Assembly: GCA_037833965.1 (NCBI GenBank)
Contig: AP031352.1
Span: 22,858,501-22,922,500 of the forward strand
DNA length: 64,000 nt
Reading direction: 5' to 3'
DNA from: Marchantia polymorpha subsp. ruderalis
Taxonomy: Eukaryota; Streptophyta; Marchantiopsida; Marchantiales; Marchantiaceae
Shown: positions 31,947 to 61,680 of the stretch, piece by piece
Position numbering within the stretch: position 1 is the first letter of the stretch
How the letters are laid out: each line of letters opens with the position of its first letter
The notes under the pieces: generated by a model
Seen by the model: the letters and a program-made list of their open reading frames with translations, nothing else
Told to the model about the DNA's origin: nothing
The model's database searches: none
Translations under genes and position numbers: made by a program

Positions 31947-34308
31947 TTAAACATGGAAGTGATCACGCATGATCAAACGATCACGGGAATCTATGACTTC
32001 CTTACAAGCCGTGACATTTTTGCACATGGTACAAAGCTCTTCAATTTGGTATCCAATTTCGTCAATTTCAGAGGAAGACCAACTACAATCAAAACGAGAC
32101 TTCAATTGGATAATAAGGTGGTTAATATCATGACCTTTAAGTTTCACGAATTCAAAAGTATACACGGGCAAACAGTCCAAATTGCTGCTTGATCGATGTT
32201 CATCTCGCAACGCTACGCAGTTTATAAATCCATCGACAATGTCAAATATAAATAACGCAACATTCTAAATATTACTTGCCGAATTAGTTTATTGGATTGT
32301 TGATTGTAGTCAAAGCAATATGCCCAAGATCTTCAATGAAACCAAAGATGTCAATATAAAAAGTTAAAGAATTGTTGCAAATGACATAAGTGAATTCGCC
32401 TACATTTTCAAAGTTGGAATTGCGAATTGCACTGATTTTGAGTAGTAACACATTAATTAGTGGTTTAACATATGTTTGTTGTTGGCTAATATAATATTAG
32501 GGTTTAGAGAGAAATTCACTCGAAGATAGAAATGTAAACTCTGAGGATAAGAGATACCAACAATGGTTCTCATTTCCTTTATATAACTCTCACCAACAAG
32601 TACAAGGAGATAAAATCTTATACTCAACATACATCCCACTCCAAGTGGATGGATGACGTGGCGGATAACACTAACAAGCACACGGATCGATGATGTAGCG
32701 CTCCAAACTAACACACTCAATCCTTACCTACAAGCACACGGATTGCTGATGTGGCACTGTCAACTAACACATCCACTATGTACCTACCAAACCAAGCGCA
32801 CCGATCGCTGATGTGGCAACTATGACTAGTGCAAAATAAAGTATCTATCTCAATATTTAGAGTAACCTCTACTTTAGTTCTAACTAACTAAAGATGGTTA
32901 CAGCTAAGCATCAATTGATGACCTTGAAGTCGCATCACCGTCGTATGTACAACATTTGTGATGCTCCTTGTGATAGCATTTAGAGACCACCAAATATCAT
33001 TTTCACGTTGAGATGCACGCCGAGAAAAGCTTATTAGAATTTCAAAATAATGGGCACTGATTTTCTATTGATAATTATCGAGCTAGCTTGTAGCACTGAA
33101 CATGGCATGTCATCTAGTCGTAGATGTCTTGGAACTTGATTTCATATTGAAAATAAGCTTCAGCTGTCAATGCAATTGCGAGATCATAGATATATGTGTT
33201 GTGTACCATGCATCCCATCTAGCTTCAAGTATGACTCTTGTAGCCTAATGTCCAATTGATGGAAAATACACCACACTTGAATGAACAATTCTAGTGAAGA
33301 TGTGTGATAACACTTGCAACATGAACTGTCATGTTTTGAGCTACGTCTGACAATACACCAATTAATTGATTTTTCCAACTGAGAGAAAATAAATCTAATA
33401 ATTTACACAAAGTTTCAAATTGTGACAAACTAGTAAGAGATACGTAAAACAGATTGATATAAGATGCAAATTATAAAGCTGGCATCATCAAATAAAACGA
33501 GCACGAATATCTATGTATAAAATACCCATGCAAGTTGTTACATCCAGTGCGATTTAGAACGTCAACACCATGCATAAGATATTAAAATTTTCTGAAAATT
33601 GACATTGCATAGGATGCGTACAAATGTAGCAATTTTCAAATTACTCATCCCACCTAACTTGAAGATCATGACAACTTACTTTGTTGCTTGAAGTGACAAC
33701 GCAATCTACTTGAGAGTAATACCAATGCCAATGTACTTAATTGCAAGTTGGTATGCCATTGGAGTTTTGATAGTCACAGAAAAGTTAGCCGTGTGAAAAT
33801 GTAGTGTGAATTCACGCATTGCGTTCTCATAGATTTGGACTTCAAAATCTTCAGTATCCCATAACATTTCTTCAATGATGAAATCAACTATGCTCTTGTC
33901 AATGTTGTAGGTTACATGGTCAGTATCTCTGTCCAGATGTGACAAAATTGTGTTCATGAAGTTTACTTCAATGTCAAAATAAATCATCTTACTTTCTTTA
34001 GAGAGTGTTTGATATTCTTCCTAACAAATTGGATGCTCGCTTTTGAGATGAATGCGGTGTTTCTTGGAACAAAACGTTGGATCAAGCGGCTTTTGTCTAA
34101 TCAATTTTTGACCTTTTGCACCATTTTTGCTCTCCCGACCAAATGATGTACAAAATCTACATGCAATTGCAATGATCCAACTCGTAGCAACATCTTGTTT
34201 TGAAATCTCAAGACCATAATCTTGTTGATGCAATGAATTGGAAGATGTCATGTGTGTTGGCATCGCAATCAACCGATTTGCTGTTCTATTTATTTTAAAT
34301 TTTTTCAA
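31947..34308 (-). mobile_element. Decayed hAT-like DNA transposon with BED-type zinc finger
   Basis: Minus-strand fragments read in order like a hAT-related transposase family common in bryophytes and oomycetes. 34308-34021 has a BED-like finger: YGLEISKQDVATSWIIAIAC, then CRFC, and a distal HLKSEHP. 33987-33706 has the IVDFIIEEMLWDTED segment. Around 33550-33500 lies ALDVTTCMGILYIDIRARF, and 33378-33184 has VWCIFHQLDIRLQESYLKLD. 32210-31947 has the C-terminal part with EIDEIGYQIEELCTMCKN. Many stops and shifts separate the fragments, so it is an old inactive copy. A ~430-bp LTR-like insertion (32473-32902) lies between the middle and C-terminal parts. Terminal inverted repeats were not found, so the true ends are unknown. 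Family assignment rests on remembered motif similarity. Confidence 0.7.
32473..32902 (-). mobile_element. Lone Copia-type LTR (fossil)
   Basis: Read on the minus strand this ~430-bp segment starts TGTAACC and ends AACAAACA. It carries a TATA-like box (GTTATATAAAGG) about two thirds along and ends with the CTCTAAACCCTAATATTA type of sequence common in plant Copia LTRs. Its upstream half has three related copies of a CACACGGAT/TGATGTGGC unit about 65 bp apart, like U3 enhancer repeats. No internal coding region or partner LTR flanks it, so it looks like a solo LTR. It sits inside the hAT-like relic and is therefore younger than that element. One alternative right-hand boundary (32490) would give a 5-bp direct repeat, TTAGC. 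Confidence 0.5.
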
Positions 34309-34458
34309 TCTGAAAATTTTTCAAATAAATAGATTTTAATTTGATATTATGGATTCAAGAAATTTGAAATTAAAGATATTATGCATCTTTTTTAGAATGC
34401 CCAATGTACAAAAGCCTGGCCATAACTCTTTCCCCATACTAAATCTTGGCTTGGATTA

Positions 34459-34482
34459 TGGGATCTTTACAAAAGCGGGGGC
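34459..34482 (+). repeat. Left terminal inverted repeat of outer Harbinger
   Basis: About 24 bp matching the inverted right end at 41347-41370 with a few mismatches and one single-base gap. The shared core is TTTACAAAA followed by a G-rich end. It is preceded by the TTA duplication at 34456-34458. Confidence 0.75.
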
Positions 34483-35657
34483 TAAAAATTATTCTTGAAA
34501 TCGCGCATCTGCAGGAAGGAGAACTGTCTGATCTTCAGAATTAGTATTTTTTTGCTTTACAAACGCCGGAGCACCAAAGACTAAAACAAAGTCTCATCTT
34601 AAATGCTCGATGACTTGGCGCTGAGAGTAAAATAACATATCATATTACAATACTACTCCACGTCGTAGAAAAAAACAACAAGAATTTAATGAGAGTCATA
34701 TGGTACTTCGTCCCAAATCGCTAAATTATCTAAAGAGATGCTCTTGGAATATGGCTTTGAATTGCATTTATTAGCCTCCACGTAGTTGCCAAGTACTTCC
34801 GTGCGCAGAAGGTGAAGTGGTATCGAAAGGAGTCATCATTCAACAATCAAATTGTTATTTCAAGGAAGACACCATGAATAATTTTTTGTCTTGGAGATCA
34901 ATGCTTCAAAATGATCGGATTGATAGATCAAGCAGTCAGGCTAAAATTGACAGATTGCTTGATTTCCAGCCCAAAGATTTAGACTCTGAAATTCAATTTT
35001 GGAGCTTACTGTATGGGCACTGTTCACAGCAACCTTGTCCAATGGCAAGGAGTGAGAATGTAGCGTTCAATTACGGGTGGTTAGGTGTACTCCTGCCTTA
35101 GAATCGAGAGTTACGTCAAATTTTACTTTCCCGGTGGAATCTTCATTTCAGGAACCACACTGCATGAATGTACAAAAATTAACTAAACGTAACATGGGAG
35201 TTCAGAACAGTGGGAAAGTTTTGAAGTAAGACAACCAATTGGAGGAGCAAGCACTGACTGAGACTTTGGAGAAGAGACAAAGAGATAAAGAAGGTTCACA
35301 AAGAAGAAAGAAGCTAAATCCTCCCAAAACGTTAAAAGGCAATAGAAGAAGGCGAAGCAAGTGATGGTTTTGGACGAGAATGACGATGATCTTAACATCA
35401 AGGTCCCATAGACTGACAAACAGATGAGAACTTTGATTTCACTAAAACAAGAGATGGAATCGGAGTTTAAAGCAGCCTCTACAAGCAAGCAAGGTAATTT
35501 CAAACATTCTTTTCTCGAGATAATGTTCATTCTGCAGTCTCGCAAATGTAAATGATAAGTTATTTCTTAAAGAGTTTAGAAATTTATGTAGTTAAATGGG
35601 CTTGGTATAATTGAATTGAGTCTGTAGAGGTGTTCTGCTTGCGAATCAAGAGTCTTA

Positions 35658-35688
35658 GGGCCTTACCACACGACCGGCAGCCGGCAAT
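35658..35688 (+). repeat. Left terminal inverted repeat of inner Harbinger
   Basis: About 31 bp that begin GGGCCTTACCACACGACCGG, with TTA immediately before. A further copy of its ACCACACGAYCGGCA core lies ~96 bp inward at 35761-35775. Confidence 0.9.
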
Positions 35689-36261
35689 TAGCTCCTGGCT
35701 AGTGAATGAAGAAATCTTCGTAGGTCTCCCTCGTCCACATGGACATTATCCACTAACAGTTACCACACGATCGGCAATGACAGGAATGAAAAGAGAACTC
35801 TAAAGTACAGCTATCGGAAAGAAGAGAATACTATCACTTCAAAAATTTTCCTTTCTTTCCTCTAATTTCAAATCCCTAAACTTCATTGTTCATTTTCTTT
35901 CACTTTCACAGTAGACTTTTGCATCCTAAATCTACATCCATCTTGCATTCAATCTTCACTTTCTTTCCATAGATTCCCACAATGGACAATGACGTCCAAG
36001 GTCTCATTTTTCTTTTTTTATTGCAGTTCACACTGTTTTGCACGATGGAATGTCTTGATACAGATCAAAGTATCATTTTGATGTGGAATTGACAACAAAC
36101 CTATTGCATATCGATTATGGTGCAAAGATTTATGCTCTCAAGAGTCACAATATCTCAACATTTATGGTTCCATGACAGAAGGTTAGGGTAACCCGGGTTT
36201 TTTGATCCAAACTTCCTCGGATCATTCAATGCGAGTGAGTTCAAAAGTCGCAAGCGGATGA

Positions 36262-37399
36262 ATGTTTTTCACTTTTGAGTTCTTGTGTTTCACTCTTGCG
36301 CCTTCATTGCAGATACAAGATACCAATATGCGCTCAGCTATACCGATTCAAGTGAAGGTGACGGTCTCCATCTCAAGATTGGCCACAAGTAATTTCATGC
36401 AGAGTATTGCGGATTTATATAGGATTCATCTTTCAACAAGTCAACAGATTGTTAATCAGTTCACTCATGTCGTGAAATTGCTACTTCTCAAGAGATTCAT
36501 TCGGTGGCCTTCCACCACCACTATGGATAAATTTGCTAGAAAGTTTGAAGATATTCATGGAATATCATATGTGGTTGGTGCGGTGGATGGTTCTCAAATA
36601 CCAACCGTGGCACCTAATCTACATGCGACTGATTATTACAATCGTAAGGGATTTCATTCTATACTATTGCAGGGTGTTGTATCTAGCAAGTGCTTATTCT
36701 GGGATTTTGACATAGGATGGGCCGGATCCATGCATGACGCTAACCTATGGGGAAGAACCGCAATTATACAATTTTGCGAAGTTGGAAAGCTTGTGCCTTA
36801 TGCTTTGGTTGGGGATGCGACCTATCCATGCCGCCCTTGGATGTTAGCTCCCTTCAGAGGTCACAAAGACGGATTTACTCAAGAGGAATACAACTGGAAC
36901 TTTGTTTAAAGTTCCACTCGTATGTGCATTGAGCGAGCATTTGAAATGCTTAAGCGTATGTGGCAAAAATTGTTAAAAAGGGTTGACGTGAAACTTAAGA
37001 ACATGTCTTAGTTAGAGAGTACTTGCCTTGTGTTATATGACATATGCATCATCCTAGAAGACAACTTCTGGAAAACAGAGTGATTGCAAGAGGCATCAGA
37101 TGAAGTCAACAATGGATTGTCACTTATGACACCTTCGGGTCCTGTGAGAGAAGAGAAGCTTGCGTTGGCTAACCATGCTTTACTCAGCTTTGTTGGAATT
37201 GAAGACAACTCCTGAGAAACATTGGAGTACTTCAAACAGGATATTGCAAGAGAATTTCAAATTTCAATGACAATTGGAGGTAAAACTACAAAAGAGTTGT
37301 CTGCAAAACGAAAGGGCATTGCCAAGAATTTATGGATGGCAAAAATAAGAGACTGTGTGGCGAAAACATTTCCCATGACGTTGAGTAGCCTAGCTTAGT
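36262..37399 (+). pseudogene. Harbinger DDE transposase of the inner element, broken
   Basis: The frame encodes a HARBI1-like (DDE superfamily 4) transposase: first Asp in VGAVDGSQIP, second Asp in GWAGSMHDANLW, and the Glu in CIERAFEMLKRMW. The conserved YYNRKGFHSILLQGV and LVGDATYPCRPWML segments lie between. The first open frame ends at 36909; the same frame continues past four stops to a terminal TAG near 37399, ending in GIAKNLWMAKIRDCVAKTFP. Each stop (TAA, TAG, TGA, TGA) is one C-to-T change from CAA, CAG or CGA. The first is directly supported because the outer transposase has Gln there (NFVQS). The N-terminal part upstream of 36262 is also degraded. Confidence 0.85.
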
Positions 37400-37955
37400 A
37401 TTTGATGTCGATGCATTTTTTGAAGCTAGCAAGCAGTAAGGTTTTTAGTGAACTACTTAGACTTGTGGCCTTAGACATCTATTATGAGGATTTATGCAAT
37501 ATCTACATGTAATAAAATCCACATTTGATCCAAGTATATACTTCCTATTAAGCAAATTCTATTTTCACTTGAGATTTCATGCACAACTTAAGAAAACGGC
37601 GAAGTTGGAATGGTAGTACTACCCTGCGCATTGAATTTCGACCCCATAGCGGGAGAGTTGGAATCGGATGCATTATTCGTGAAGTCATACAGCGCAGTTC
37701 CTTGTGAATCCATCGTGTCGAGATAATGTCAAAAAATTTCCAATAGAGTGGGAAACTACCGTACTCCTCGAAGAAACTTGAAAAAAGTGTGAATATCCAC
37801 ATGAAGTTGAAGTTTTTGTAAAAACCGAGTTTACAGGCGGAAGTGCCTGGTACCCCGGAGCGATCAATTTTTTTGCCATCTGAGATTTTTCAAATCGCCG
37901 CTCTCTCCCGTGTGGAAAGGGGAGTAACCAGCCAACCAATGACAGGTGAGATTTC

Positions 37956-37985
37956 ATTGCCGCTGCCGGTCGTGTGGTTTGGCCC
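37956..37985 (-). repeat. Right terminal inverted repeat of inner Harbinger
   Basis: This is the inverted partner of 35658-35688: the plus strand reads GCTGCCGGTCGTGTGGTTTG then GCCC, followed by TTA at 37986-37988. Confidence 0.9.
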
Positions 37986-39527
37986 TTAGTGTTTGATTAG
38001 ATAATGATATACAATGCATTGCTGCAGCTTTCATCGTTCTCTCGGTTGTTGAACTTCTCATATAAGAAAGTTAATGCAACTAGCAGCAAACATATCTATT
38101 TTGGAAATTTAGTGGTTATTATTTTAATCATTCAGTCGCATAATTGGATGAGTTTTCTCCAAGAGACCGAAGACTGAAGACATTTGCTCAGAGCTCTGCA
38201 AACGGATAATGAAGTAATACACAGCACACATGAACACACTTCCAAAACTTTGTAGTCCCTTTTCTTTACTCCATGAAATTGAGCTGATAGCCTGTGTTAT
38301 TACTTGTAACGGTACTTGCATAGAAGCATAACATATATGAATCTAATGAAATTCATTCAAGAGTTTATTGCATATCAGATTTCCGGAAAAGTTCAACCTC
38401 CCATAGTTACCAGGTGACTTCGTAATTCTAAATGAGGAAAAACTTAGGTCTCAATGTTGTGAACGAGTGCTGATTGATGACATAGAACTTTAAACGTTTA
38501 TCTTTCCTTTCTTTAGCAATAGAGTTTAACATTATATGTAATGTGATGAAGTCAAAGACAAACAAATTTTGATGTGTTGTCGTTCTGGAGCGAGTTAAAG
38601 TTTATGTACAAATTCTTCATTATACATAGTTTCCAGAATTTTTGCTCAGTCTGTTCCAATATGATTAATTGTATTTAATTTTCAGAGAAAGAATCTGTAG
38701 CTTTCGTGGTTTGTTTACAAGATCTCGGTTTATTGAACTGAGTTGGTTGGATGGTCAGACTAATTTGTGTATTTGTTCTTATGGTCAGGAGTGAATACTT
38801 GGATCAAGCTGCAGAAAAAATGGTGATCAGTTGTCGCAATTTCACCAAGACTACAGAAGCTTGTAAGAAGAAGTATTTAGCTGAGTTCACAAAGTACAAG
38901 AAAGACAAGTTGCACAATGTTGTAATTGGTGATGATCAAAAAATAACATGTAAGTTCCATGATGAGCTCAACCTCCATTCTAAAGTTCAAGTTTTTGTGC
39001 ATCCCATCCACCAGCAATGTTTGCACCCAACACAACATCCTAATAGTAGAACACATTTTAAGCACATGGAGCTCAGTCAAATAAGTGGTGGCCTAAGGAT
39101 CAGTGTATGTACCTGACAGGTAAAAACTCACAAAGAACAAAGATTTAATCAGAAAAGACGATGGGAAATGTTCTCAGCCAGAAAAACTTGGCAAATTGTG
39201 ATACATGGTATTCTCCTAACAAACATTATCGTCTGAATCCCAATAAATATCATAATCTCTTGTGTTTCGCATGACATGCTCTGTAAACAAAACTTTAGCT
39301 AAAACCCCATGCATATTTATACCTTCTCTTAACAAATGCATATATGTCTACTCTCTCATACTCACATTAGGAAAATACTCAATCTTCTCATTATCATTCT
39401 GTACTGAAGATGCATTTCGATTACCATCACTAACAGCATGTAGTTGTTGACTTTCATAATCTGCAATCCTTTGAATTGCCTCACTTCTCAACGGCCCATA
39501 CCAACCAACCCGATTTTGTTTCAGACA

Positions 39528-40506
39528 TTACTCTGCTTCTAAATGTAGATTAGTATTGACCCAATCTTTGTGCATTATACACAAATTGTGTAATAAAATG
39601 CACGCAACAACAATATCTGCAGTGTGTTGTAATGGCATCTCGATCCTGCGCAGAAGAATTCTCCACCGATCTTTTAGTAAACCAAACATCCAACCCACAC
39701 ACATTCGTGTAAACGACTGCACAAAATTCCAACGAGCTTTCCACCGTTCCAAGACCTCCTTAGTTCTCTTTTAAGAAACATACATGTATGGCCTCAGCTG
39801 ATAAGCTACATCTCCAATTAATTTGTGAGGAAAATATTTGCCTTCCATCACTCGTCTCCCTATTACAAAATTTTTGAAGATAGTATAATCATGTTGAGAA
39901 CCTGCCCAACCAAAATCAAAATCCCAAAAGACACACTCCATATCAACAACCTCATGCAAAAGGCATGAATCAAATTCTACCTTGTTGTAAAATACTTCCT
40001 TGTCTTGAAGTGAAGCAATTATTGCTATATGACTGCAATCTTTATATCCCATAATATTTGGAATCCCATGAATTTTTTCAAATCGACTGGCATCATCTTT
40101 AATACTACTTGCAGTCCACTTTGGCACAAACAGCGGAATTCCTATTCGTACAAGAATCGCACAGAATTCTCTTACAATAATAGAAGCAAGCCCTTCACTA
40201 ATATCGTACAAATCATCTCGTGAGATCATTTCCTGTTCCAATCGATTTAGAGCAACAACTATCATGTCTCGAACCAAACAACTAAGGGTTCCTTTGCAAA
40301 GTTCGTCCACGGAGAGTTAGTAAGGACGTAAGTAGTCGAACTTCAATTGCCCTACCTCGTGCATCCTTCTTCATCTCCGGACCTACTAATCCTATGATAA
40401 ATTCGAATGTCATTGGCAGAATTTGAAATCTTTTCACAAATTCCCGCTTTGAATATATTCCAAGAGTACAATATCTACAAATCTTCGGTGTCTTTTTCCA
40501 CGCCAA
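39528..40506 (-). pseudogene. Harbinger DDE transposase of the outer element, broken
   Basis: Minus-strand fragments 40506-40282, 40310-39771 and 39752-39528 cover the transposase. The first Asp (YKDCSHI) and second Asp (GSQHDYTIF) are present. The third acidic residue is lost: CVGWMFGLLKDRW stands where family members have V-E-R-x-F-G-x-L-K. A frameshift with missing residues lies near 40300, and an in-frame TAA lies at ~39771. The C-terminal CILLHNLCIMH segment is typical. It runs convergently to ORF2 (35363-39116), the usual PIF/Harbinger arrangement. Confidence 0.85.
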
Positions 40507-41346
40507 ATCTGTTTTGGAGCCCGACCGAAATTCCCAATTCTTTTACAACTGCTTCAACAATCCCTTGAACTCATAGAAGAATTGCAAAAACAGTTTCCTT
40601 CTACTCCATTTGTCTCTCAACAATGATACGAGATACCAACATACATATGAAAGCGAGAGGTATAACATTCTGCTTATCCATTGTGTAGAATTGCAAAGGA
40701 AAATCAAAAACTTGTTAGTGGTGATCTCACGTTGAGAAGCACGTTATGGCGGTAGTCGCAATACCCAACGTAGCTAACTAGCAGTAAACAAAAGCCAATC
40801 TTCCCATGCGATCAAAAGCAATCTTACAAGAAGAATAGTTGCGTCCATCCCCTAATTATTCGCTCATGCAATCACTATCCTTTCAAGCGGCGGGACCACT
40901 ATCCATTGTTCAAGCTGAAAATTCCTTGCTATGAAAATGTGAGGGAGAGTATACACTTTCTCACTGTCACCTCAAGTCAAAGCCACGTTGGTTTTTGAAG
41001 ATGCGAAAAATGTCATATAGCTCATTGCTCTCGAGCAAAAACCGCGATAGGGTTCATTTGATTGAATTTCTACGATTCTGGAAGACAGTTGTTTCGTTTG
41101 GAATGTAGATTCCCTGTTGTTCCACGAAAATAGCATATGCAATAGCACATGTGCCCAGAAAACTAATAACCTGAGCAAAGTACCAACTTTCTCATTGTCT
41201 GATAGTGGAATCAAGTTGTTAAGAAATGACATGCATTCTCTTTACAAGAAATGTCGTGGTACTTGATCCAACCTATCCGCTTGGAGTACTATCCTTGTCT
41301 AAATATGGCCCCAACTTGGCACGCAGATTATTTCGACGGTATGTGA

Positions 41347-41370
41347 CCCCCGGTTTTGTAAAAGAGCCCC
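41347..41370 (-). repeat. Right terminal inverted repeat of outer Harbinger
   Basis: This is the partner of the 34459-34482 repeat. It ends in AGAGCCCC and is followed directly by the TTA duplication at 41371-41373. Confidence 0.75.
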
Positions 41371-41373
41371 TTA

Positions 41374-54392: not shown

Positions 54393-55640
54393 CATGCGAC
54401 TTCAGATTCGTTTGAAATGGTCCCTCGATGCAGTCCCAAAAAAATCCCCAAAAAGTTAGCCTCTCCTCTCAATGCAGTCATGCGACTTCGGATTCATTTG
54501 AAATCGTCCCTCGATGCAGTCCCAAAAATTCCCAAAAAAGTTAGCCACTCCTCTTACCGCAGGCATGCGACTTCAGATTCATTTGAAATGGTCCCTCGAT
54601 GCAGTCCCAAACAAATCCCCAAAAAGTTAGCCTCTCCTCTCAATGCAGTCATGCGACTTCAGATTCATTTGAAATGGTCCCTCGATGCAGTCCCAAAAAA
54701 ATCCCCAAAAAGTTAGCCTCTCTTCTCAATGCAGTCATGCGACTTCAGATTCATTTGAAATGGTCCCTCGATGCAGTCCCAAAAATTCCCAAAAAAGTTA
54801 GCCACTCCTCTTACCGCAGGCATGCGACTTCAGATTCAATTGAAATGGTCCCTCGATGCAGTCCCAAAAAAATCCCCGAAAAGTTAGCCTCTCCTCTCAC
54901 TGCAGTCATGCGACTTCGGATTCATTTGAAATGGTCCCTCGATGCAGTCCCAAAAATTCCCAAAAAAGTTAGCCACTCCTCTTACCGCAGGCATGCGACT
55001 TCAGATTCATTTGAAATGGTCCCTCGATGCAGTCCCAAAAAAATCCCCAAAAAGTTAGCCTCTCTTCTCAATGCAGTCATGCGACTTCAGATTCATTTGA
55101 AATGGTCCCTCGATGCAGTCCCAAAAATTCCCAAAAAAGTTAGCCACTCCTCTTACCGCAGGCATGCGACTTCAGATTCAATTGAAATGGTCCCTCGATG
55201 CAGTCCCAAAAAAATCCCCGAAAAGTTAGCCTCTCCTCTCACTGCAGTCATGCGACTTCGGATTCATTTGAAATGGTCCCTCGATGCAGTCCCAAAAATT
55301 CCCAAAAAGTTAGCCACTCCTCTTACCGCAGGCATGCGACTTCAGATTCATTTGAAATGGTCCCTCGATGCAGTCCCAAAAAATTCCCAAAAAGTTAGCC
55401 TCTCCTCTCAATGCAGTCATGCGACTTCGGATTCATTTGAAATGGTCCCTCAATGCAGTCCCAAAAGTTCCCAAAAAATTTAGCCACTCCTCTTACCGCA
55501 GGCATGCGACTTCAGATTCATTTGAAATGGTCCCTCGATGCAGTCCCAAAAAAATCCCCAAAAAGTTCGCCTCTCCTCTCAATGCAGTCATGCGACTTCG
55601 GATTCATTAGAAATGATCCCTCGATGCAGTCCCAAAAAAT
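54393..55640 (+). repeat. Tandem satellite, 15 copies of an 85/86-bp unit with higher-order structure
   Basis: Units start at 54393, 54479, 54564, 54650, 54736, 54821, 54907, 54992, 55078, 55163, 55249, 55333, 55418, 55503 and 55589; the last is partial. Each starts CATGCGACTTC and holds the core GAAATGGTCCCTCGATGCAG. Two subtypes mostly alternate: one ends CTCTTACCGCAGG (85 bp), the other CTCTCAATGCAGT (86 bp). A 342-bp block of four units (54736-55077) is repeated almost exactly at 55078-55417, shown by the shared variant ATTCAATTGAA at 54836 and 55178. Because 85+86=171, the reading frame is kept over each pair, so long plus-strand frames stay open, including one of 294 codons (54599-55483). 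Whether it is transcribed is unknown. Confidence 0.97.
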
Positions 55641-57662: not shown

Positions 57663-60600
57663 TTAAATATGTAGGAGGGACATTTCCAATGTAGCTTGAG
57701 AAGTGTGAGTTGAATAAGCACTCAGCGCAGTCGCTGATCCCGGATCAGACGCTATAGCTAAACCTTGCAACATATTTAGGACATTCGATGTGTCATCCAG
57801 GTAGTATTTCGCCTTGCTGGGCTTCTGTCCTACGGTGCACGCAAAAACTTCCGCCATCGAGGACTGCGGAGGGAGTGACATGGTCGTCGCAATGCTTTCG
57901 AACATGTCTTCATCCGACCTATCGTCTCCAACGCATAAAACAAAATCGGGAGGTGATCCTCGTTCTGCCATCATAGAAAGCAGCTTCTCCACAATAACAC
58001 CTTTGCTCACACCCTGCAAAATTACAGGCCCTGTCAGAGAAGAGCACAGCAGCACACAACGGCGTTCTCGCTGAACGGAAGAACCAACAGCAGACTGTAA
58101 GCCCCATCGAGTGGCGGGGGCCACTCCTTACCTGCGGTTTGACTTCCACAATGTGTTGACCACTTTTTACAGCGACAGGCTCGTTAGCTAACACGCTCTC
58201 GAGATGGTCCAGTAGCTCCTTCGCTTGCCACGATCCGAAGTCCGGATCTGCATCTCGATAATGCCACACTATAGCGCTTTCCTTTTCTTCGATTATAGAG
58301 CCATCTGTGCTCTCGGTGTACAAGTTCATCACCGGAGCGGCGACTTCCTTCCACTCAAAATCCTGTACCGACACACAGGTGGTCCACTCCTCGTCCTTTC
58401 TCCACCTGAATCCCAAGTTCGAGGCACGGCCTCGTCAGAACGGAAAAACGCTTCCTCTCCAGAACCCACAAAAATTACCCACCCTCGGCTAGCAACATCA
58501 GCTCCACAGAACCCTCAGAATACCTGAAACCAGCAGATCCATGACTGTCCTCCCAGACATCGCCCAACCCTAAAAACATACCCCTCCCAAAAACGTAAGC
58601 ACCACGCCTGAATTTTCGAGGTCCGAATTCTCGTGCGAGGGCGGCAATCCGAGACATACAAAAATTCGTTCGGAGCGGAATTGTCTCCCACGGCGTCGAT
58701 CATGGCGTGGGGAAATCGGATGGGGAGGAAGGGACTCACCTGTAGTAGTAGCCGTGCTCGGCAGCAATTCCCAGTCGCTCGCACGGAGAGAACCAATCCG
58801 AAAGGGTTTTGCGGCCTCGGCCGCTGACGATGAAAACGGAATTCTTGGGGTCGTTGCAGAGCGTGTTCAGAAGGGTGATCACGTCTTGATTCGGGGTCTT
58901 GTTGTGAGATGTCTGCGTGATCATGGTGCCGTCGTAATCCAGCAGAATGGCCCTCTTCTGGCTGCGGCCGTAGGCGGACACAATGTGCTCGGTGAGGAGC
59001 TTGCGGAAGTTGGGGTCCAGGGCCACGACCTTGAAGCTCAATCCGAATCCGATGCCGTAGGATCGCCGCCGCTGGTGGTCTCGGCAGGTGCGCTCGAGGT
59101 CCCCCATGAAACTCTGAGCCCAGTATGCGACATCGTGCGTGCTCACGTACTTGAAGTGCTTCTCGTGCCGCATGTGCTTCTCGGCCGTAGGCATCGTGAT
59201 CGCTGTGTTCAAGGCATCCGCCATCGTTTCGATGTTCCAGGGGTTGACCCGAATGGCGCCGCTCAGCGAGGGCGAGCACCCAATGAACTCCGACACCACC
59301 AGCATGCTCTGGCGGGCGGTCTCGGCGCTAGCGCCATTGGCAGGCTCGGCCGCGACGCAGCCCTGCCTCGCCACAATGTACTCGTACGGGTGCAGATTCA
59401 TGCCGTCGCGCACCGCCGTGACTACGCAGCACTCGGCGATAGCGTAGAAGGCCAGGCGCTCGTACAGCGGGACCGACCGCTCGAGCAGCACCACGGGCTG
59501 GTAGCCCTCCCACCCGAACTCGCGGTTGATTCGCCTGGCGATGGTGCTGGCCTCGTTCTGAATTTCCAGCACGTCCTTGCCCCGGCCCCGGGCGGGCTTG
59601 ACGATTTGCACCAGCACCACCTTGCCCCTGCGCTGCGGGTGCTGCTTGAGCAGCTGCTCCATCGCCAGCAGCTTCAGCCCGATGCCCTTGAAAATGTCCA
59701 TGTCGTCCACGCCGAGCAGCACCGTCTTGCCCGCATACTCGGCCCGCAGCTCGCCTATTCGCCACTCGGTGTCGTGGCGCTTCAACCTCGTGTTCAGCTG
59801 GCCCATGTGGATGCCCACGGGCATGATCTTGATGCCCACAGTGCGCCCGTAGTACTCCAACCCCATGTAGCCACGGCGCGACTCGTACACGAGGCCGAGC
59901 ATGCGGCTGCAGCACGAGAGGAAGTGGCGCGCGTAGTCGAAGGTGTGGAATCCGACCAGATCCGCGTTGAGCAGGGCGCGGAGGATTTCGTCGCGCACGG
60001 GGAGAGTGCGGTAAATCTCCGAGGACGGGAAGGGGCTGTGCAGGAAGAATCCGAGCTTGATTTTGTTGAAGCGCCGGCGCAGGAAGGTGGGCAGCACGAG
60101 CAGGTGGTAGTCGTGCACCCAGACGAAATCGTCCTCGGGGCTGATCACCTCCATCACCTTGTCGGCGAACAATTTGTTGGCGCTCACGTACGCCTGCCAG
60201 AGCGAGCGATCGAAGCGGCCGCCGTGATCGGGCGCCAGCGGCAGCATGTAGTGGAAGAGCGGCCAGAGCAGCTGCTTGCAGAAGCCGTGGTAGAAATTGA
60301 CTTGCACGTGGGCGGGCAGGAAGGCCGGCACGCAATTGAAGGTCTCGAGCAGCGCGCTGGCCACCTCGTCCTGCTCGCTCGGCTCCACCTCCACTTTCAG
60401 GCACCCGATGTAAATTACCTCCATGTCCTCGGGCAGCCCATCCTTGAGCTGCAGCACCAGCGAGTCCTCGTCCCAGCTGAAGGTCCAGCCGGTGTCGTCC
60501 GCCTTCCTCTGGGCCAGGAGCGGCAGCATGTGCGCCACGATAATTATGCGCTCGGTCGAGAGCGACGACGGCGCCTCGGACGTGACGCTGTTGCTGTTAT

Positions 60601-60733
60601 CGTCGTCCCGGCCTTCCGCCGAGACAATGCCGGCCACCGTCATCACTCTGGGCAGGCGCCTGCTGCTGCGCGGAGCGACGCCCATGTCCCCCGCCGAGAG
60701 ATCTAACAAATTTGCGTACGATCTTGACACCAT
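57663..60733 (-). CDS. Class II trehalose-6-phosphate synthase/phosphatase-like protein, 3 exons
   Basis: Exons 60733-58740, 58405-58132 and 58013-57663 join in phase to 872 residues, the usual class II length (~860). I start at MVSRSYANLLDLS, the conserved plant TPS N-terminus; an upstream in-frame Met at 60763 would add ten residues. The GT20 synthase-like domain covers ~residues 55-545 (FVWVHDYHL, FFLHSPFPSSEIYRTLP, AVRDGMNLHPYEYI). The loop that is GVDRLDYIKG in active class I enzymes reads GVDDMDIFKG, the class II form lacking the substrate-binding Arg. The C-terminal HAD phosphatase-like domain has LLDYDGTMI (~597-605), SGRGRKTLSDWF, the motif III Lys region and GDDRSDEDMFE (~785). Class II proteins are thought to act mainly as trehalose-phosphate/SnRK1 signalling regulators rather than synthases. 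The 1994-nt first coding exon without introns is typical. Its high GC leaves long shadow frames on the opposite strand. Confidence 0.96.
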
Positions 60734-61680
60734 CTTCGCCCCTACTTTCGTCTTCCGTTCCAATTGCTGGTAGTTTCAACTTGGGATGCGGACTGATTTG
60801 CAACATTGATTCGCTCCTCGCCCTGCCTCACGTCATCGAGAACTCCCTCTCCCCTCGGGGCTCCCACTCCTCGCTCACAATTTTCCCTCCCTCTCTCTCT
60901 CTCTTTCTACCGCGCTCTCGCTCCTTCTCCCGCTCGTCCTCGTCCTCCTGCTCTCCGCTCGCAAAACCTGCTTCGCCTTGCCTTGCCTTACCTTTCCTTG
61001 CCTGGCCTTGCCCCCGAGCTTCTCAGCTCAAGCCCATCCACGAACGCGGCGCTAGGCAGTCCCAGGAGGGCTGCACGTCAATGTCCGCAATTCCACTCTA
61101 CGAGGTCAAAAGCGAGAGTGCGGAATTCCATCCTCGGGAAATCAGATGCGCTCCATTCCTACGTCGTCGGGTGTTTCCTCCCTCCCCTGCCAATCTTTTC
61201 TGCGAAAGAGCTGTCACAAAACCACCTGCTGCTCTTCTCTTCGTCTGGCGCACGTCAACAACTCGACGCTATCCGAATCCGCCGTCGTCCAGGTCACCTC
61301 ACCTCACCTCACCTCACCTACCGCAAAAGCGAGGAATCTCGAACTCCGGGGAGCGCCTAAAATCTACCACCTGCTCGTTCACTCGCTCGCTCCTGCCTGC
61401 CTCCCTGCCCACGGCGGAGCACTCCGACTCCGCTCGGTGCTCGGTGCTTCCCCCGTCGAGACACGGGCGAGCGAGAGAATGGATGGGGCACGCGATCAGG
61501 GCACACAGCCCCTCGCAGAGAAACGAGAGCAGCAAAATTTGGGATTTGATCCCCGCGGGAATTCGCCCCGCGCAGCAGCAGCAGCAGCAGTGGATAGGGA
61601 AGTAGATAAGCGACGGCCGCTTCCGCGGATTAACGTGGCAGCGGCGAATGCGAGCGAGCGAGAGGAGTGGGCACGAAGGA

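What the first reader, a model, noticed from the sequence alone, without database searches (positions are those of the whole stretch)
34459..41370. Harbinger transposon nested in the intron of another Harbinger's ORF2
Two independent sets of terminal inverted repeats, each with TTA duplications, define an outer element (34459-41370) and an inner one (35658-37985). The inner one lies between two exons of the outer ORF2 whose splice phases match (donor after 35493, acceptor before 38789). The insertion orders the two events in time and shows that plant Harbinger ORF2 can carry an intron that tolerates a 2.3-kb insert.
Basis: partly seen in the sequence, partly recalled or inferred. Interest (0 to 1): 0.72.

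Follow-up and report, generated by a model that had tools for sequence, protein, structure and literature searches.

The report
One dead Harbinger transposon inside another
In a liverwort chromosome, one cut-and-paste transposon jumped long ago into the intron of a gene carried by another transposon of the same superfamily; the nesting is real and well proven, but it is an ordinary event between two broken copies and does not show that the intron 'tolerates' the insert.

Summary
The nested insertion is real and exact. The outer element is 34459-41370, the inner 35658-37985, each flanked by TTA. Both belong to repeated families of this genome. In 9 of 9 other outer-family copies that align at the inner insertion point, the site is uninterrupted with one TTA. 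The genome is Marchantia polymorpha or a very close relative (PYL1 identical over 189 residues to PDB 9tb5). Both transposases match DDE_Tnp_4. The split '+' gene is the Myb/SANT-like accessory gene; the outer transposase lies on the minus strand. Joined exons of a sister copy match Myb_DNA-bind_4 across the junction, just under cut-off. The acceptor is better placed after 38791 than after 38788. 'Tolerates' is not supported: the outer copy also carries an inversion, a stop, a frameshift, a deletion and a 61-bp insertion, and the inner lacks its accessory gene. Terminal branches (0.084 outer, 0.075 inner) fit the order. Nested insertions, inversions and a two-exon accessory gene are already published for PIF/Harbinger. 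More interesting in passing: four young sisters of the inner element share a piece of a host alpha-amylase gene.

The parts
34456..34458 (.). outer target-site duplication TTA, left
   Evidence: sequence
34459..41370 (+). outer PIF/Harbinger element (interrupted by the inner one)
   Evidence: TIRs and TSDs; family ends
34459..34481 (+). outer left TIR
   Evidence: pairs with the right end
34625..34791 (-). block inverted in this copy relative to 11 of 11 sister copies that match there and 3 of 3 short derivatives; about 120 bp next to it missing
35250..35493 (+). exon 1 part of the outer Myb/SANT-like accessory gene (in-frame stops in this copy; 5' limit not determined)
35494..38791 (+). intron of the accessory gene, now holding the inner element (acceptor after 38791, or after 38788)
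35655..35657 (.). inner target-site duplication TTA, left
   Evidence: single TTA in 9 of 9 informative sister copies
35658..37985 (+). inner PIF/Harbinger element, internally deleted
36262..36909 (+). inner transposase fragment, DDE_Tnp_4
   Evidence: E 3.7e-15
37585..37593 (+). deletion junction in the inner element; the C4:19701720 sister copy has about 1.86 kb here, including the accessory gene
37986..37988 (.). inner target-site duplication TTA, right
38792..38984 (+). exon 2 part of the outer accessory gene (frameshifted, 3' part deleted)
38984..38991 (+). deletion junction in the outer element; five sister copies aligned close on both sides have 0.46-1.5 kb here
39528..40310 (-). outer transposase remnants, DDE_Tnp_4 in two pieces
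   Evidence: E 6.1e-7 and 1.2e-5
40275..40335 (.). 61-bp insertion inside the outer transposase region, absent from 5 of 5 sister copies aligned
41347..41370 (-). outer right TIR
41371..41373 (.). outer target-site duplication TTA, right

Best explanation
Two different cut-and-paste transposons of the PIF/Harbinger superfamily are nested. The outer one inserted at a TTA, apparently in an old burst of its family. Later an element of a second family inserted at a TTA in the roughly 1-kb intron of the outer element's Myb/SANT-like accessory gene. Whether the inner was already internally deleted and moved in trans by a full-length relative, or lost that part afterwards, is not known. The outer copy is almost certainly inactive now. 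Its inversion, stop, frameshift, deletion and 61-bp insertion cannot be dated relative to the nesting. Shown: the ends, duplications, empty sites, families and transposase domains. Inferred: splicing, trans-mobilisation, and the timing of the decay.
For: Duplications and ends; empty site in 9 of 9 informative copies; families; transposase domains; the two transposase pieces share 36% identity over 163 positions, so two families of one superfamily; joined exons of the C1 copy match Myb_DNA-bind_4 across the junction, 26.6 bits against 20.3 for exon 2 alone; terminal branches 0.084 outer, 0.075 inner; decay.
Against: The Myb_DNA-bind_4 match lies just under Pfam's cut-off (26.6 against 27), and the window's own exon-2 frame gave no Myb match, only a chance-level one to another family (E 0.069). 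The branch lengths are close and no error was computed; alone they do not prove the order (the nesting does). No empty site for the outer element was found in this genome. No RNA evidence.
Confidence: 0.95

Rival explanations
1. The nesting was tolerated: the inner element was spliced out with the intron and the outer element stayed functional for a time.
For: The insert lies inside the intron. Branch lengths are close (0.084 and 0.075), so the outer copy may have been young when hit.
Against: The copy is broken in both genes and rearranged in its 5' region. None of 9 sister copies readable at the site carries the inner element, so no spread of the composite is seen. No RNA data.
Confidence: 0.08
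2. One mosaic element or an assembly chimera rather than two insertions.
For: Both are PIF/Harbinger with TTA duplications.
Against: The two families occur separately many times, and the empty site is seen in 9 of 9 informative copies.
Confidence: 0.02

Closest known systems
PIF/Harbinger-like MtPH families of Medicago truncatula (PMC2213677)
   Same: Two genes per element (transposase and orf1), 3-bp duplications, internal deletion derivatives, inversions and nested insertions, links to MITEs, and one composite of two related elements (passages and section 7 read).
   Different: Apart from that composite, the nested elements described in section 7 are gypsy-like retrotransposons and an unidentified element with a 5-bp duplication; here a second PIF/Harbinger family sits in the intron of the accessory gene, in a liverwort.
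PePIF1 of Phalaenopsis (PMC6327408)
   Same: ORF1 is a Myb/SANT protein in two exons, TTA duplication (passages read).
   Different: Orchid element; the passages seen mention no insert in that intron.
Pack-PIF elements of maize and rice (PMC8903248)
   Same: PIF elements that carry host DNA (passages read), like the young sisters of the inner element.
   Different: The Marchantia copies keep long transposase frames; their right ends were not located here.

Membership tests
PIF/Harbinger (outer element) | 3-bp TWA target-site duplication | tested here: met
   TTA on both sides; left triplet TTA or TAA in only 4 of 10 sister copies read
PIF/Harbinger (outer element) | terminal inverted repeats that are ends of a repeated family | tested here: met
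PIF/Harbinger (outer element) | DDE_Tnp_4 transposase | tested here: met
   39771-40310 E 1.2e-5 (25.4 bits, cut-off 24.8), 39528-39752 E 6.1e-7 (29.6 bits), minus strand; interrupted in this copy
PIF/Harbinger (outer element) | Myb/SANT-like accessory gene | tested here: inconclusive
   C1 sister copy, PF13837 E 8.3e-6, 26.6 bits against a cut-off of 27; the window's exon-2 frame alone gave no match
PIF/Harbinger (inner element) | 3-bp TWA duplication and TIRs | tested here: met
   left triplet TTA or TAA in 11 of 19 sister copies read
PIF/Harbinger (inner element) | DDE_Tnp_4 transposase | tested here: met
   E 3.7e-15; frame cut short in this copy
PIF/Harbinger (inner element) | Myb/SANT-like accessory gene | tested here: not met
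   missing from the window copy by deletion; present in sister copies, PF13837 at 20.7 bits, under the cut-off of 27. A loss in this copy, not a mark against the family
PIF/Harbinger (both) | mobility catalysed by the encoded proteins | not testable with these tools
   needs an assay

The most novel reading that the evidence does not exclude
The family of the inner element includes a recently, perhaps still, mobile Harbinger lineage in Marchantia with long open transposase frames, which has picked up a piece of the host alpha-amylase gene and then a second block found on C5; the nested copy in the window would be an old, internally deleted cousin of that lineage.
Probability: 0.35. Interest if true: 0.45.

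Novelty: new member of a known kind. Interest (0 to 1): 0.2.

Why it matters
It is a clean worked example of ordered transposon nesting in a liverwort, with nine natural empty sites. It does not change what is known of PIF/Harbinger elements. If the young sister lineage is active and gene-carrying, it could give Marchantia, a laboratory plant, an endogenous Harbinger system to study.

Tried and rejected
Tolerance of the insert: looked for other copies of the composite (none among the 9 copies readable at the site) and at the state of the host copy (broken). Empty site of the outer element: no match of the joined 400-nt flank query runs across the site anywhere; the two flanks match the window itself, and 28 other places match parts of the left flank only (query 2-176). 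A host-gene reading of the two '+' exons was dropped because both exons recur within the outer family. An intron starting at the GTAAG near 38956 was considered and dropped, because the exon-2 frame of sister copies runs through it. Exon 1 of the inner family's accessory gene was not found in held sequence, so a shared intron position is only suggested: exon 2 begins G-V-x-x-W in the inner family and V-x-x-W, or G-V-x-x-W with the other acceptor, in the outer. The right TIR of the young inner copies was not found. 5S and 5.8S rRNA searches did not settle the organism; the PYL1 match did. The first receptor candidate fetched, at C2:2245159, I judged by eye not to be a PYL. I saw no report of this locus in the listings; those listings are capped and the library is partial.

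Full report
Observation. The sequence shows both elements as described. Outer: 34459-41370, TIRs TGGGATCTTTACAAAAGCGGGGG / (reverse complement) GGGGCTCTTTTACAAAACCGGGGG, TTA on both sides. Inner: 35658-37985, TIRs GGGCCTTACCACACGACCGGCAGC / (reverse complement) GGGCCAAACCACACGACCGGCAGC, TTA on both sides.

Genome. The window is G000:C3:22858501-22922500 of a 241-Mb genome in 9 contigs. A predicted protein from C9 (L070, 224 aa) is identical over all 189 aligned residues (36-224) to PDB 9tb5, named MpPYL1 receptor; 9tb6 is named as from Marchantia polymorpha. I take the genome as Marchantia polymorpha or a very close relative. That contig C1 (5.6 Mb) is a sex chromosome is a guess from size.

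Families. DNA searches of the own genome gave 74 matching pieces for the outer left 542 bases, 60 for 37989-41373, 24 for the right 574 bases and 52 for the inner element, the window itself included each time; one copy can give several pieces, and the tool calls such counts lower bounds. Three of three short ~600-bp derivatives fetched (L075-L077) carry both outer ends; by eye L075 (TTA) and L077 (TAA) show matching duplications, L076 does not clearly. At the left ends of sister copies the triplet before the element is TTA or TAA in 4 of 10 (outer) and 11 of 19 (inner); the rest are TCA, TGA or unlike.

Empty site. Window flanks of the inner element joined with one TTA align without a gap at the join to 9 held copies, 9 of 9 with a single TTA. 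Other outer-type loci are uninformative there: two lack the middle of the intron, one does not match over the stretch, six start beyond it.

Genes. The inner transposase fragment (36262-36909 +) matches DDE_Tnp_4 at 3.7e-15; the outer transposase is on the minus strand, in pieces at 39771-40310 (1.2e-5) and 39528-39752 (6.1e-7). The two are 36% identical over 163 positions. The split '+' gene is an accessory gene: joined exons from the C1 sister copy match Myb_DNA-bind_4 at 26.6 bits (cut-off 27) with the junction inside the matched stretch, and exon 2 alone gives 20.3 bits. The window's own exon-2 frame (38751-39116) gave no Myb match at E 0.1. In the alignments the donor GT is kept in 9 of 11 other copies; AG is kept before 38792 in 9 of 10 and before 38789 in 4 of 10 (my counts). 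Both acceptors keep the frame. Of seven sister copies tried by pattern, four have an intron of 965-1000 bp and two of 280-305 bp; in the seventh the acceptor pattern was not found.

Decay. In the window copy the block 34625-34791 is inverted compared with 11 of 11 sister copies that match there (the C1 copy has no match there) and 3 of 3 short derivatives, with about 120 bp lost beside it; the junctions show short matching bases (read by eye). The accessory gene has a premature stop and a frameshift and lacks its 3' part. Five sister copies aligned close on both sides have 0.46-1.5 kb where the window jumps from 38984 to 38991; a sixth, C8:15650495, aligned less closely, differs by only about 0.15 kb net. 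A 61-bp insertion sits in the transposase region and is absent from 5 of 5 sister copies aligned. The inner copy lacks about 1.86 kb relative to the C4:19701720 copy, the part where that copy carries the accessory gene. In the seven outer loci whose frames of 90 codons or more I listed, the transposase region is open only in short pieces (introns were not modelled), so the outer family looks dead as far as seen.

Timing. In trees of 9 outer and 17 inner sequences, window included, the window copies have terminal branches of 0.084 and 0.075 substitutions per site; the other outer branches run from 0.068 to 0.101, a star-like shape that suggests a burst. The order inner-after-outer is proven by the nesting; the branch lengths agree but no error was computed. 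The insert may have come while the outer copy was young, which leaves the tolerance idea open but unsupported.

Known background. PIF/Harbinger elements with nested insertions and inversions, and a composite of two related elements, are reported in Medicago (PMC2213677, passages and section 7). A two-exon Myb/SANT ORF1 is reported in Phalaenopsis (PMC6327408, passages). The finding is therefore a new, cleanly documented case of a known kind.

Beyond the finding. A young subclade of the inner family (C3, C4, C7, C9) differs by 0.85-2.78% pairwise. Three of the four copies have 471-codon transposase frames and the fourth has 434, counted from stop to stop. The C7 and C9 copies match the C4 copy at 99% for at least another 2.2 kb. 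In it lies an exon-like piece whose peptide matches barley alpha-amylase (E 8.4e-20; that the chain is barley's is named in the table for 1amy); the longer broken frame around it gave no Pfam match. The same piece occurs at six places, among them places beside all four young copies. One, C2:16573750-16574046, lies next to an alpha-amylase domain at C2:16574929-16575351 on the matching strand, so it is the likely source gene. A further 860-bp block, seen in the C4, C7 and C9 copies, is 96% identical to C5:29248839-29249698. This looks like gene capture, a known habit of PIF elements (PMC8903248, passages), but the right ends of these copies were not found, so that the piece lies inside the element is inferred from its recurrence beside the young copies.

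Noticed in passing
G000 C4:21988707, C7:1325334-1327224, C9:4676889-4678778, C3:14826233-14828168 (L012, L013, L014, L015): Young sisters of the inner element: 0.85-2.78% pairwise divergence and 434-471-codon stop-to-stop transposase frames; recent movement is likely.
   Followed up: partly
L078:316-605 and C2:16573750-16574046: A piece with an alpha-amylase exon sits beside all four young inner-family copies; the likely source gene is on C2.
   Followed up: partly
L078:602-1460 and C5:29248839-29249698 (L079): An 860-bp block in three young copies is 96% identical to one other locus on C5, beside the end of a reading frame there.
   Followed up: partly
34625-34791: Micro-inversion with about 120 bp lost, seen only in the window copy among 11 sister copies and 3 short derivatives that match there.
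   Followed up: yes
40275-40335: 61-bp insertion flanked by a short TCGAAC-like repeat, with no other full copy in the held sequence searched.
   Followed up: partly
L075, L076, L077: About 600-bp MITE-like derivatives of the outer family; matching 3-bp duplications read in L075 and L077, not in L076.
   Followed up: partly
34259-34435: The left flank of the outer element overlaps a dispersed AT-rich repeat, 28 partial matches elsewhere.
   Followed up: no
54599-55483: A 294-codon frame made of near-identical repeated units, probably a tandem repeat rather than a gene.
   Followed up: no
58736-60763: A trehalose-6-phosphate-synthase-like gene on the minus strand (Glyco_transf_20, E 1.2e-179, and a Trehalose_PPase match).
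   Followed up: no
G000 C1:20895-44404 and contig ends: 5S rRNA copies lie 7.8 kb apart on part of C1, and at least one lies near an end of each of the nine contigs.
   Followed up: no
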